NCBI GenBank assembly: GCA_015520195.1
Contig: WAQN01000095.1
Location: forward strand, 1-38,125
Direction of reading: 5' to 3'
DNA from: Desulfurococcales archaeon
GTDB lineage: Archaea; Thermoproteota; Thermoprotei_A; Sulfolobales; Acidilobaceae
Length of the DNA stretch: 38,125 nt
Part shown: positions 16,265 through 22,319 of the stretch, in pieces
How positions within the stretch are numbered: the first letter of the stretch is position 1
Layout: every line of letters starts with the position of its first letter
Program-made: the position numbers and the translations under genes
The notes under the pieces: model-generated
Databases searched by the model: none
Told to the model about the DNA's origin: nothing
What the model saw: only the letters and a program-made list of their open reading frames with translations

Positions 16265-16364
16265 AGCCGGGTCGTCTAGCGGCCAAGGATGCGGGGCTCT
16301 GGCCCAGGAGCCCCTCCTGGGGGGAACCCCCGTGACCGGGGTTCGAATCCCCGCCCGGCTACCA
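16265..16364 (+). tRNA. tRNA-Gln(CUG) with 24-nt intron; CCA encoded
   Basis: Acceptor AGCCGGG/CCCGGCT, D arm GTCT..GGAT, anticodon stem CGGGG/CCCCG, T arm CGGGG-TTCGAAT-CCCCG, discriminator A and CCA; anticodon C16299-T-G16301. Confidence 0.92.
16303..16326 (+). other. tRNA intron at canonical position 37/38 with BHB motif
   Basis: Intron 'cccaggagcccctcctggggggaa': 7-bp stem CCAGGAG/CTCCTGG; GGGG pairs with exon CTCT (two G-U) as the 4-bp central helix; 3-nt bulges GG|C and AA|C. Confidence 0.88.
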
Positions 16365-18158: not shown

Positions 18159-19058
18159 ATGACTAGTAGACTACAAAGACTGCTTGAAAGCCTAGATAAA
18201 AGAGACTTCGAGGTACTCAGGGTAATAGAGAGGTACATGTATAGATTCGAGTATGTACCCGTGGAGCTCATAGAGAAGCGTTCAAGACTGAAGCCGGGAG
18301 AGCTCTTAAAGAGCATCGATAAGCTATCCACATTGAAACTAGTCAAGAGGAGGCTTGGCAGTGTTACTGGCTACACGTTAACCTATACAGCCCTAGACTT
18401 ACTAGCCCTGGCTAATCTTGTATCACGCGGCGTGATATCCAGGATCGGGGACAGGATAGGTGTCGGTAAGGAGAGTGACGTCTACATAGCAGAGACTCCT
18501 ACTGGCGACCTCGTTGTAGTCAAGTTCCATAGAGAGGGTAGAACCTCATTCACCCACCTGAGAAGACATAGAGCCTATGTAGCTAGAGTTGATAGGGTAG
18601 GATGGCTTAGGATAGCTAAGCTAGTCGGCGAGAGGGAATTCAAGGCCCTGCTATCACTTCATAGAGAGAAAGCCAGGGTTCCTGAGCCAATAGCCTACAA
18701 TAGGCACTGTGTAGTCCAAGAATATATTCCAGGCATAGACTTATACAGGGTTAAACAGTTGGACGAAGCAACAGCAAAGAAGACGCTTCTCGAAATACTA
18801 GAGTCTCTAAGGATAGCCTATCTTAGGGTAGGCATAGTCCATGGCGACTTAAGCGAATATAATATAATGATCACCGATGAAGGGGAGGCCTATATAATAG
18901 ACTGGCCACAATATGTGTATAGAGAGGATGAAACAGCAGAGTCTCTGCTAAATAGAGATGTAAATTATATAATAAGGTTCTATAAGAGAAGATATGGGAT
19001 CGGGGTAGAGCCAGATAGGGCTCTACGATACATTAAGGGGGAGATTAATGCAATCTAA
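18159..19058 (+). CDS. rio2: Rio2-family serine/threonine kinase
   Basis: N-terminal wHTH; 'GVGKESDVYIAETPTGDLVVVKFHREGRTSF', 'GIVHGDLSEYNIMI', 'IIDWPQ'. Confidence 0.95.
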   Translation: MTSRLQRLLESLDKRDFEVLRVIERYMYRFEYVPVELIEKRSRLKPGELLKSIDKLSTLKLVKRRLGSVTGYTLTYTALDLLALANLVSRGVISRIGDRIGVGKESDVYIAETPTGDLVVVKFHREGRTSFTHLRRHRAYVARVDRVGWLRIAKLVGEREFKALLSLHREKARVPEPIAYNRHCVVQEYIPGIDLYRVKQLDEATAKKTLLEILESLRIAYLRVGIVHGDLSEYNIMITDEGEAYIIDWPQYVYREDETAESLLNRDVNYIIRFYKRRYGIGVEPDRALRYIKGEINAI

Positions 19059-21087
19059 GTCTAGCCCCCTCTACATGGGGGTAGACATACAGTATGGTAG
19101 CCCACAGGCTAGGGGAGGGGCTAGATACTATGTAGTTGTGGTAGATTCACGCGGGATTCTAGTTGATAAAGCCTCAGATGCTAGTATAGCTAGGGTCATA
19201 AGGCTAGCATGGAATTACAGGCCTAAGGCTATAGGCGTCGATAACATATATGAGTTGGCTTCAGACGCGAGAGACTTGGCCAGGATAGTCTCACTACTTC
19301 CTCCAGAAACCGAGATAATACAGGTAAACGTGGACCATGATCAGACACTACCCCTCCAACGTATAGCTAGGGATGCAGGATTCGAGATCACATCTAAACC
19401 ATCCCCTGGAAGAACAGCTTATATAGCAGCTGTCCTAGCATCTCAGGGTTATGGCCAGCCTGTGAGGCTGGTTGAGGAAAAAACGCTTATAATAGTCTCT
19501 AAGGGTAGGAGCTCCGGTAAAGGCGGGTGGAGCCAGCAGAGGTATCAGAGAAGACTCAGGGCTGGCGTACATCAGGCGGCTATGAGGATAAAGGAGTTGC
19601 TAGATAATGCTGGTTTAGAATACGATTATAGGTATAGGAAGAGTGAGGGTGGACTGGAATCAGCTGTATTCACCGTGTATGCTGAGAGATCCAAGCTTAA
19701 GGGAATAGTTAGAAATCATAGCGGCCCTGACTATACGGTTACCGTGAAGCCTGTATATAAGAGTAAGATTATCCTTGGCAAAACTGGTGAGAGACCCCAG
19801 AGACCAGTGATAGTAGGATTCGATCCTGGTATTTCGTCGGGGATAGCTATTATCGATTTGAAGGGTGAGATACTCTATGTTGATAGTTTTAAGAGCCTGG
19901 ATAGAGGGAGCATGCTTGACATAATACTACGATATGGAAAACCAATAATAATAGCTGTTGATGTAAAAGATATACCCGATAGCGTTAGAAAGCTTGCAGC
20001 CCAAATCGGGGCTCACATATTCACCCCCGACAGTGACATAAGCACGGTTGAGAAGAGAGAGCTCTCACTCAAGGCATTGAAGGGTAAGATGCCTAAAGAC
20101 TCACATCAAAGAGACGCACTTGCAGCTGCATACAAGGCCTATACATTTATGAGGAGTAAACTCGACCACATAGACTCCTACCTGGCTAGGCTAGGTATAG
20201 GCTTAGACCCTGAATCTGTCAAGGTAGAGGTTCTAAAGGGTAAGAGCATAGCTGAAGCTATTGAGAAGGAGATAGAGAGGAGGCTAGGTGAGAAGGATAG
20301 GCTAAAGGGGGCTGAAAGGGCTAGGGAGAGAAACACCAGTAGCCATGCAACCAATGTCTCTGAGAGGGGTGAGTTGAAGCTTCAGATAGAGGCTTTGAAA
20401 GCTGAAAAGAGGATGCTCGAAGAAAGGATCCAAAGACTTGAGAGGGAGCTTGAGAAGGAACGTATTAATGCTAGAATAACCATTTCATCCATCAAGAAGG
20501 AGGCTTATAAGGATTCAGAGTTAAGGGCTTATAGGGACAGGATTGAAGCCTTAGAGAAGGAGTTAGAAACACTTAAACGTAAACTAGAGGATGAAGCTAG
20601 GAATAGGGATTCAATCAAGAGAATCCTATACAAGGTTTATATCGGAGACACGCTTATGGCGAGGGCTATAAACACGCTCACAAAGAGGTCGCTAAACAAG
20701 AGTATAACGGAGATAGGGCCTTTGAGGCCCGGAGAGATAGTAGTGGTGAGAGACCCGAACGTATTCGATAGAGAATCAATAAGGATCCTAAGAGACTCCA
20801 ACATATATGGAGTAGTTATCGAAGGACGTGATAGAGGCTCACTAGGCAACGCGCTTGAGAACGTGGGAATCCCAGTGGTTATCTTAAATGGGGACCAGTC
20901 TATTGCAAGAATAGATAGTCTTGTAATACTCAAGTCACAAATAAGAGACCTAATAGCTGATAGAGCAAACTACCTTGAAGAGAGAAGAACATCAAGTTTT
21001 AACCTAGAAAAGATAATCAACGAGTATAGGCGTAAAAGATTACAGGCGAGAGATAGACAGCGCCACCCTAATACCCATAAAGCATGA
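19048..21087 (+). CDS. DUF460 protein: two RNase H-like segments plus long coiled coil
   Basis: 'YMGVDIQYGSPQARGGARYYVVVVDSRG' and 'VIVGFDPGISSGIAIIDLKGEILYVDS' (RuvC/YqgF-like beta1-beta2), followed by a charged coiled coil. Confidence 0.8.
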   Translation: MQSKSSPLYMGVDIQYGSPQARGGARYYVVVVDSRGILVDKASDASIARVIRLAWNYRPKAIGVDNIYELASDARDLARIVSLLPPETEIIQVNVDHDQTLPLQRIARDAGFEITSKPSPGRTAYIAAVLASQGYGQPVRLVEEKTLIIVSKGRSSGKGGWSQQRYQRRLRAGVHQAAMRIKELLDNAGLEYDYRYRKSEGGLESAVFTVYAERSKLKGIVRNHSGPDYTVTVKPVYKSKIILGKTGERPQRPVIVGFDPGISSGIAIIDLKGEILYVDSFKSLDRGSMLDIILRYGKPIIIAVDVKDIPDSVRKLAAQIGAHIFTPDSDISTVEKRELSLKALKGKMPKDSHQRDALAAAYKAYTFMRSKLDHIDSYLARLGIGLDPESVKVEVLKGKSIAEAIEKEIERRLGEKDRLKGAERARERNTSSHATNVSERGELKLQIEALKAEKRMLEERIQRLERELEKERINARITISSIKKEAYKDSELRAYRDRIEALEKELETLKRKLEDEARNRDSIKRILYKVYIGDTLMARAINTLTKRSLNKSITEIGPLRPGEIVVVRDPNVFDRESIRILRDSNIYGVVIEGRDRGSLGNALENVGIPVVILNGDQSIARIDSLVILKSQIRDLIADRANYLEERRTSSFNLEKIINEYRRKRLQARDRQRHPNTHKA

Positions 21088-21245
21088 GCAAAGAGGCTAT
21101 GGAATACACTCTAGATTAAGCCAGCTATCCAAGACTCTCAGCAGCAGCTAATGGTCAGCTGAGACAGGTATCCTCATTGCTTAAATGCTCAGCCCCGTGG
21201 ATTCCTCATTCCCTCCAGACCTTCTTAATCATTATAGAGCTATAC

Positions 21246-21312
21246 GGGGGTTAGAGACCTCGATTCATTGCACCCTCCTATTAGAGGGCCTCATCGAGGA
21301 GTCGCGTCCCCC
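21246..21312. ncRNA. candidate structured RNA: nested stem-loop of three helices, strand unknown
   Basis: GGGGG(21246-50)/CCCCC(21308-12); CCTCGAT(21258-64)/ATCGAGG(21293-99); CCCTC(21273-77)/GAGGG(21284-88), loop CTATTA. Confidence 0.35.
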
Positions 21313-21572
21313 ATTATAATTTAACTCATTGTGTAATCTAAGGCTTAAAGGCTTGTTTGAGATTAAACAAAAATGATTTAGTGATTCTTTGATGATGCGG
21401 GGGGTCTAGTATTCAGTATTGTCGGTATTGAATCTTCCAAATGTCTCTCCTGTGAGAGGAGTCTATTGTGAATTAGGATAGAGCACTTCATGGTTTCCTA
21501 GTGTTGGTTTTGATCTGCATCGTTACTGGTAGCGGTAGGTTTTAGTTGAAATGGTATTTGTTGTGTTGTTTT

Positions 21573-22319
21573 TCATTTATTATTTATCTTGGTTAGGAGG
21601 TATCCATTATCTAGTTTTTCTAGCTTGTAGTTTAGGCTTTTGGCCGTGACTTCTATTATTTTATGAGTGACGTATAGTTTTTCTTTTTTCCAGGATGGTC
21701 TTTTGTAGTCTTTATACCAGTATTCTTCTTTTCCTCCATAGCCGTTGACGAGTATTTCGCTTGCATTCATAAGCATTCCTAGTATGACTGCTCTATCGCC
21801 GTCTGTGAAGCCTCCTAGTGGTAGTGTTGAATGGGGGGTGCATATCTGGCTTGTGTATATTAGGTGTTTTCGTTTATTTATTGTTGTTAGCCTGTATACA
21901 TTGTCTGAATGTATGTGTATGAATAATACTGTTGCTACATATGGTGCCTCATTTATTAAAAGTGTGCTTAGATCTAGGTCTCCGGTTATGTATAGTAGTT
22001 TTATTCCATATTCCAATCCGATCCACACAGCTGGCTCTGGACCTCCATAGGTGTCGCAGTCCTCTGGTATATAAGTGGTGTTTGGGCCAAGTATGCAGAG
22101 TCTCTTATTGTTAACCCCCCGGTTTACAATGTAGAGTGATTCGCAGATACTCCAGCAATTATTCCATACCATCATTGAGGAACTAGCTTCACTCACCCTA
22201 GATATGTCATAGATAGCCTCTGCTATTAGATTATAAGCTCTCAGACTAGCCTTAGATGCCTCAATGAGTCTCCTAGCTATACTACAGCATCTAGAGTATA
22301 CATTGTAGCATTGATGCAT
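21573..22319 (-). CDS. DUF115/MptE-like (6-hydroxymethylpterin diphosphokinase-like) protein, divergent
   Basis: 'CILGPNTTYIPEDCDTYG' and 'LPLGGFTDGDRAVILGMLMNASEILVNGYGG...YVTHKIIE' match the general DUF115 layout. Confidence 0.55.
   Translation of the reverse strand: MHQCYNVYSRCCSIARRLIEASKASLRAYNLIAEAIYDISRVSEASSSMMVWNNCWSICESLYIVNRGVNNKRLCILGPNTTYIPEDCDTYGGPEPAVWIGLEYGIKLLYITGDLDLSTLLINEAPYVATVLFIHIHSDNVYRLTTINKRKHLIYTSQICTPHSTLPLGGFTDGDRAVILGMLMNASEILVNGYGGKEEYWYKDYKRPSWKKEKLYVTHKIIEVTAKSLNYKLEKLDNGYLLTKINNK

What the first reader, a model, noticed from the sequence alone, without database searches (positions are those of the whole stretch)
21246..21312. Three-tier nested stem-loop in an otherwise empty intergenic region: candidate new ncRNA
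The sequence GGGGG-ttagaga-CCTCGAT-tcattgca-CCCTC-ctatta-GAGGG-cctc-ATCGAGG-agtcgcgt-CCCCC contains three perfectly complementary helices (5, 7 and 5 bp) in strict nesting, separated by asymmetric internal loops. No protein ORF covers it. Flanks are AT-rich ('taatcattatag' before, 'attataattt' after), which fits a short independent transcript. It does not fit tRNA, RNase P, SRP RNA or a standard C/D box RNA.
Basis: partly seen in the sequence, partly recalled or inferred. Interest (0 to 1): 0.62.

Follow-up and report, generated by a model that had tools for sequence, protein, structure and literature searches.

The report
H/ACA guide RNA on minus strand
The hairpin is the gene of a small guide RNA, read from the opposite strand, that very likely directs conversion of one uridine to pseudouridine in the heart of the archaeal ribosome; it belongs to a well-known class of RNA but to a conserved family that Rfam does not hold.

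Summary
The nested hairpin is real and is a noncoding RNA gene, but it reads on the MINUS strand and is a canonical archaeal box H/ACA pseudouridylation guide, not a new class. Evidence: a 5-bp lower stem; a bipartite pocket; a 10-layer upper ("GA") stem ending in a kink-turn (GA / AAUGA); an AUA box 14 nt after the upper helix. The pocket (CGCGAC + CUCU) pairs with 23S rRNA AGAG[U]C-GUCGCG, the best match among all uridines of relatives' 16S and 23S. That uridine corresponds to E. coli U2457 (Psi in E. coli and yeast from memory; by inference P. abyssi U2549, target of Pab35.2). Covariance models recover the family in 71 of 229 genomes of the order (30 genera), most weak hits unread. In 30 aligned members 10 of 12 pairs have double changes, 95.8% of cells pair (60-65% when slid by one), guide sequences GCGAC/CUC stay fixed, and an AT-rich TATA-like zone sits about 22-32 nt upstream. 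Rfam 15 has no match. Directly downstream (21153-21213, minus) lies a dual-guide box C/D sRNA, also conserved, aimed at two other domain V sites; the tandem was seen only in this genome. Expression and modification remain to be tested. New member of a known kind.

The parts
21241..21312 (-). box H/ACA guide sRNA (hairpin plus AUA box)
   Evidence: structure, guide-target match and homologues
21308..21312 (-). lower stem P1, 5' strand GGGGG
   Evidence: pairs with 21246-21250; P1 covaries in homologues
21301..21306 (-). 5' guide CGCGAC of the pseudouridylation pocket
   Evidence: 6 bp with 23S GUCGCG; GCGAC kept in at least 90% of the 30 aligned members
21293..21299 (-). upper stem P2, 5' strand CCUCGAU (with U 21300 opposite U 21257 as the first layer)
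   Evidence: pairs with 21258-21264; strong covariation
21291..21292 (-). kink-turn GA, 5' side
   Evidence: GA column kept in at least 90% of homologues; it was fixed in the first search pattern
21273..21288 (-). apical hairpin CCCUC-UAAUAG-GAGGG
   Evidence: direct reading; fold
21265..21269 (-). kink-turn 3' side AAUGA: three-base bulge AAU then GA
   Evidence: TGA column kept in at least 90% of homologues; fixed in the first search pattern
21258..21264 (-). upper stem P2, 3' strand AUCGAGG
21253..21256 (-). 3' guide CUCU of the pocket
   Evidence: 4 bp with 23S AGAG; CTC kept in homologues
21246..21250 (-). lower stem P1, 3' strand CCCCC
21241..21243 (-). ANA box (AUA), 14 nt after the P2 helix (13 after the U.U layer); ACA at the like place in many homologues
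   Evidence: direct reading; alignment
21344..21349 (-). TATA-like TTTAAG, about 31-37 nt before the RNA's first base
   Evidence: A+T-rich peak at -32 to -22 of the aligned start in 30 homologues; promoter activity inferred
21153..21213 (-). dual-guide box C/D sRNA (C 21203-21210, D' 21189-21192, C' 21171-21178, D 21155-21158)
   Evidence: box reading and homologues with the same two guides
21193..21201 (-). D' guide UCCACGGGG of the C/D sRNA
   Evidence: 9 bp with 23S CCCCGUGGA in 4 of 4 relatives
21159..21168 (-). D guide CCUGUCUCAG of the C/D sRNA
   Evidence: 10-nt complementarity (UACCUGUCUCAG) to 23S UGAGACAGGU in 4 of 4 relatives

Best explanation
Window 21241-21312, minus strand, encodes a single-hairpin archaeal box H/ACA sRNA. 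L7Ae binds the kink-turn, Cbf5-Nop10-Gar1 bind the two stems and the ANA box (established biology of the class). The two pocket strands (CGCGAC and CUCU) pair with 23S rRNA 5'-AGAG-U-C-GUCGCG-3', leaving the U in Cbf5's active site, where it becomes pseudouridine. The U corresponds to E. coli 23S U2457, six nucleotides from the catalytic A2451. Shown by computation: structure, covariation, conserved guides, conserved complementarity, ANA/ACA box, upstream A+T-rich zone. Inferred: transcription, RNP assembly, actual modification, and that this organism's own 23S (missing from the assembly) carries the same target.
For: Minus-strand fold z -3.9. Features as in the published archaeal model (10-layer GA stem, 14-16 nt to the ANA box, short 5-6 bp P1 in Crenarchaea). 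Homologues found first by a pattern that fixed only guides and GA/TGA; the hits in G007, G027 and G015 proved to have a paired P2 and P1, neither in the pattern. R1 finds 20 of 214 genomes, R2 71 of 229 genomes, 30 genera; all ten further loci read show the same plan. Covariation: 10 of 12 pairs with double changes, 83 double-change cells (shuffles 22.8 +/- 3.6), slid registers collapse. With the conserved register the target U ranks first of 3066 uridines counted over seven rRNAs from four relatives for 'own', and 1st-3rd in the 13 other guides tested. Target sequence present in 15 of 34 genomes searched, itself varying only at one base. A+T peak at -32 to -22 in 30 homologues.
Against: The guide-target duplex alone (6+4 bp) was not better than shuffled guides in a looser scan of several registers; the register used was chosen after seeing the target. 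Own genome holds no rRNA. Own box is AUA, not ACA, and P1 is only 5 bp. G018 lacks a clear P1 and G134 has AA for GA. The models find nothing in several close genera (g5, g6, g10), including ones whose target is intact.
Confidence: 0.95

Rival explanations
1. It is an H/ACA guide RNA, but its main target is another RNA (tRNA, mRNA or a different rRNA site).
For: Short guide duplexes; H/ACA motifs can serve several sites (PMC4652768); tRNA targets were not scanned here.
Against: Guide letters GCGAC and CUC are the most constant unpaired letters in the family, and the same U is the top or near-top rRNA match for every member tested.
Confidence: 0.06
2. An unclassified plus-strand ncRNA as drawn by the first reader.
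For: The plus strand folds too (z -3.1), as any hairpin does; A+T-rich flanks on both sides.
Against: Kink-turn, ANA box, upstream A+T zone and guide-target match all appear on the minus strand only.
Confidence: 0.02
3. A chance hairpin, terminator or mobile-element end.
For: A hit of 29 bp in G020 proved a chance match in a coding frame; hairpins arise by chance now and then (1 in 12 shuffled windows).
Against: Covariation across 30 sequences; only one copy in the genome; no T run after it.
Confidence: 0.01

Closest known systems
Pab35 (HgcF, RF00058) motif 2, Pyrococcus abyssi, target 23S U2549
   Same: Archaeal H/ACA motif for what is, by the conserved spacing of 36 nt to the Pab U2585 equivalent, the same uridine (inference; P. 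abyssi 23S not aligned here). The pair Pa35.2-L2549 is reported as productive in PMC4652768.
   Different: Pab35 is a three-motif RNA; this is a single hairpin; Rfam finds no match to RF00058 here.
Pyrobaculum sR201/sR202 canonical H/ACA sRNAs
   Same: Single crenarchaeal hairpins with a 5-6 bp lower stem, a 10-layer GA stem and an ANA box (PMC4652768).
   Different: No sequence comparison made here; identity of their targets with this one not established.
Pab21 plus C/D sRNA transcript of P. abyssi
   Different: Co-transcription here is only inferred from a 27-nt gap and the same strand.
Yeast snR34 and E. coli RluE (from memory)
   Same: Make the pseudouridine at the equivalent 23S/25S position (E. 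coli 2457, yeast 2826).
   Different: snR34 is a two-hairpin eukaryotic snoRNA without kink-turn; RluE is a stand-alone protein.

Membership tests
archaeal box H/ACA sRNA | stem - internal pocket - stem hairpin | tested here: met
   P1 5 bp, pocket, P2 7 bp; covariation in both helices
archaeal box H/ACA sRNA | kink-turn or kink-loop in the upper stem at the proper distance (GA stem 8-11 layers) | tested here: met
   U.U + 7 bp + two G.A = 10 layers; GA and AAUGA on the right sides; kept in homologues, though the first pattern fixed GA/TGA (model)
archaeal box H/ACA sRNA | ACA (ANA) box 14-16 nt after the pocket's upper closing pair | tested here: met
   AUA 14 nt after P2 (13 from the U.U layer); ACA at 14 nt in G015; some homologues have other letters
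archaeal box H/ACA sRNA | bipartite complementarity to an rRNA around an unpaired U-N | tested here: met
   AGAG[UC]GUCGCG in relatives' 23S; rank 1; own rRNA missing
archaeal box H/ACA sRNA | lower stem of 7-9 bp | tested here: not met
   5 bp here, as in crenarchaeal sR201/sR202 with 5-6 bp; so met only in the crenarchaeal form
archaeal box H/ACA sRNA | binds L7Ae, Cbf5, Nop10, Gar1 and guides pseudouridine formation | not testable with these tools
   needs biochemistry; presence of the four proteins in this assembly was not searched
RF00058 HgcF and other Rfam H/ACA families | score above Rfam's gathering cut-off | tested here: not met
   no match in the window or in 11 homologous loci
archaeal box C/D sRNA (21153-21213) | C, D', C', D boxes and guides adjacent to D' and D that match rRNA | tested here: met
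   AAUGAGGA / CUGA / AAUGAGGA / CUGA; 9- and 10-nt matches to 23S; same two guides in one RNA in G014, G022, G026, G028, G060

The most novel reading that the evidence does not exclude
A single minus-strand transcript carries an H/ACA guide and a dual C/D guide whose three predicted targets (about E. coli U2457, G2067 and G2599) all lie in 23S domain V near the peptidyl transferase centre, so that one promoter would supply the modification set of the catalytic core.
Probability: 0.45. Interest if true: 0.4.

Novelty: new member of a known kind. Interest (0 to 1): 0.3.

Why it matters
It gives a guide for a pseudouridine position that is modified in bacteria and eukaryotes by different means (from memory), with a covariance model that annotates it across an archaeal order that includes Sulfolobus-like genomes (inferred from Rfam sR20 hits). 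It shows that plain nested hairpins in crenarchaeal gaps, unseen by Rfam, can be assigned by guide-target logic. It does not change what is known about how such RNAs work.

Tried and rejected
Plus-strand reading as H/ACA: no target, no kink-turn, no ANA box. The DNA hit in G020: chance match in a gatC-like frame. An extra C/D sRNA at 21187-21241 and another at 21115-21185, suggested by weak Rfam hits: homologues show that the real C/D sRNA is one dual-guide RNA at 21153-21213. First target scans had some rRNA loci in the wrong orientation, repeated correctly. Pattern hits are no more numerous than the reversed control, so only those with P1/P2 pairing were kept. For the D' guide pattern alone most hits lack C/D boxes and are chance. 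Idea that the site is the orphan Psi2585 of P. abyssi: rejected by spacing; it fits U2549 instead. A scan of genome contigs for Thermococcales rRNA found only two unrelated archaeal MAGs. Sigma-70 promoter scan: nothing, and not apt for archaea.

Full report
Observation. The three nested helices are exactly where stated. The plus strand folds at -30.2 kcal/mol (z -3.1), the minus strand with its tail at -33.7 (z -3.9). It is the only perfect nested 5/7/5 hairpin in the window; 12 shuffled windows gave one. That alone would be modest; comparison settles it. A 44-aa frame overlaps on the plus strand, without support as a gene. The gap lies between a DUF460 gene (19048-21087, +) and a frame on the minus strand (21573-22319).

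Anatomy on the minus strand. GGGGG-A-CGCGAC-U-CCUCGAU-GA-GG-CCCUC-UAAUAG-GAGGG-UGC-AAU-GA-AUCGAGG-U-CUCU-AA-CCCCC-GU-AUA. P1 is GGGGG/CCCCC. P2 is CCUCGAU/AUCGAGG. The internal loop above P2 has GA on the 5' side and AAU-GA on the 3' side: two sheared G.A pairs and a three-base bulge, a kink-turn. Counting the U.U layer, P2 and the two G.A pairs, the 'GA stem' has 10 layers, the length in solved H/ACA RNPs and in Pyrobaculum sR201/sR202, which also have lower stems of 5-6 bp (PMC4652768). An AUA box follows the P2 helix by 14 nt (13 from the U.U layer); the published range is 14-16, and AUA is an accepted variant in eukaryotic H/ACA RNAs (PMC7991803). None of this is present on the plus strand.

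Target. The assembly (64% complete) has no rRNA, so rRNAs of four relatives of the same family were used. Loose scans over several registers gave nothing beyond shuffled guides. In the register with the U.U layer closed, the best uridine of 3066 for this RNA is in 23S AACAGAG[UC]GUCGCGGG: CUCU/AGAG and CGCGAC/GUCGCG, 10 bp. This register was chosen after noticing the match, so the rank is not an unbiased p-value; the support comes from the homologues. The site follows GGGAUAACAG and is E. coli U2457 by counting from A2451 (numbering from memory). The distance from it to the UUU of GGUUUGC (E. coli 2491-2493) is 36 nt to the last U; P. abyssi U2585, U2588 and U2603 fit E. coli 2493, 2496 and 2511 by spacing, which makes U2549, the productive target of Pab35 motif 2, the same site. 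This last step is inference.

Homologues. A pattern that fixed only CGCGAC, GA, TGA, CYCT and spacing hit 12 of 117 genomes, no more than its reversed control, but the hits in G007, G027 and G015 proved to have a paired P2 and P1, neither in the pattern, and an ACA in G027 and G015. G018 has P2 but no clear P1. A covariance model from four sequences found 20 of 214 genomes in 11 genera. A second model found 71 of 229 genomes in 30 genera; of these, 30 loci were aligned and read, the rest are unread and the weakest may be other H/ACA RNAs. The family reaches 2-3 Mb genomes of group f11, whose loci carry Rfam sR20 matches and so are probably Sulfolobaceae. In A3 (30 sequences) 95.8% of cells pair, 10 of 12 pairs have changes on both sides, double-change cells are 83 against 22.8 +/- 3.6 in shuffles, and sliding by one column drops pairing to 60-65%. 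That alignment was fitted to the structure, which favours it, but the same covariation is visible in the small MAFFT alignment. While P1 and P2 letters change, GCGAC and CUC do not. The target itself is AGAGUCGUCGCG in most genomes checked, AGGG in G009 and G134, AGCG in genus g6, where no homologue was found. G134's homologue has CCC in place of CUC opposite AGGG, a hint of guide-target covariation, but its kink-turn is imperfect, so this is not counted as evidence.

Promoter. In 30 homologues the A+T content peaks at -32 to -22 of the aligned start, with TTTAAR/TTATA-like words; here it is TTTAAG at 21344-21349. That is the place of an archaeal TATA box for transcription of the minus strand from P1; a second A+T-rich zone lies next to P1.

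Neighbour. On the same strand, 27 nt further, lies a box C/D sRNA (21153-21213): AAUGAGGA-A-UCCACGGGG-CUGA-GCAUUUAAGC-AAUGAGGA-UA-CCUGUCUCAG-CUGA. Its guides match 23S CCCCGUGGA and UGAGACAGGU in four of four relatives. The D guide with its D box is found in 32 of 71 genomes against 1 control match, and in G014, G022, G026, G028 and G060 the same two guides sit in one RNA of the same plan. By the five-nucleotide rule the methylated bases would be about E. coli G2067 and G2599 (numbering from memory). H/ACA and C/D genes are not neighbours in the relatives checked. Pab21 of P. abyssi is a precedent for an H/ACA RNA at the 5' end of a C/D transcript.

Verdict. A canonical H/ACA guide RNA, in a family absent from Rfam 15 at the thresholds used. 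What is shown: structure, conservation, guide logic. What is inferred: expression, RNP assembly, modification, co-transcription.

Noticed in passing
window 21153-21213 (-): Dual-guide box C/D sRNA directly downstream of the H/ACA gene, with both guides aimed at 23S domain V and conserved in several genera.
   Followed up: yes
window 16265-16364 (+): ARAGORN calls an odd 'tRNA-???' of 100 nt with a four-base anticodon gccc: probably a tRNA-Gly gene with an intron.
   Followed up: no
G020:C86:4087-4136 (-): The 23S-like match breaks off after GGGAUAACAGCGUC, just 3' of the target U, into unrelated sequence: perhaps an rRNA intron inserted next to the target site.
   Followed up: no
L028 and L029 upstream; L084-L087 and L089: In genus g4 and in group f11 the H/ACA homologue lies right beside a tRNA gene, while in g8 it lies between a glutamate dehydrogenase-like and a SAM hydroxide adenosyltransferase-like gene: the gene moves about.
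   Followed up: partly
genus g6 genomes (G005, G025): Target reads AGCG instead of AGAG and no guide is found by the models; a guide with CGCU may exist.
   Followed up: no
window 21573-22319 (-): 248-aa frame with only a sub-threshold Pfam match to MptE-like (E 0.00086, below the curated cut-off).
   Followed up: no
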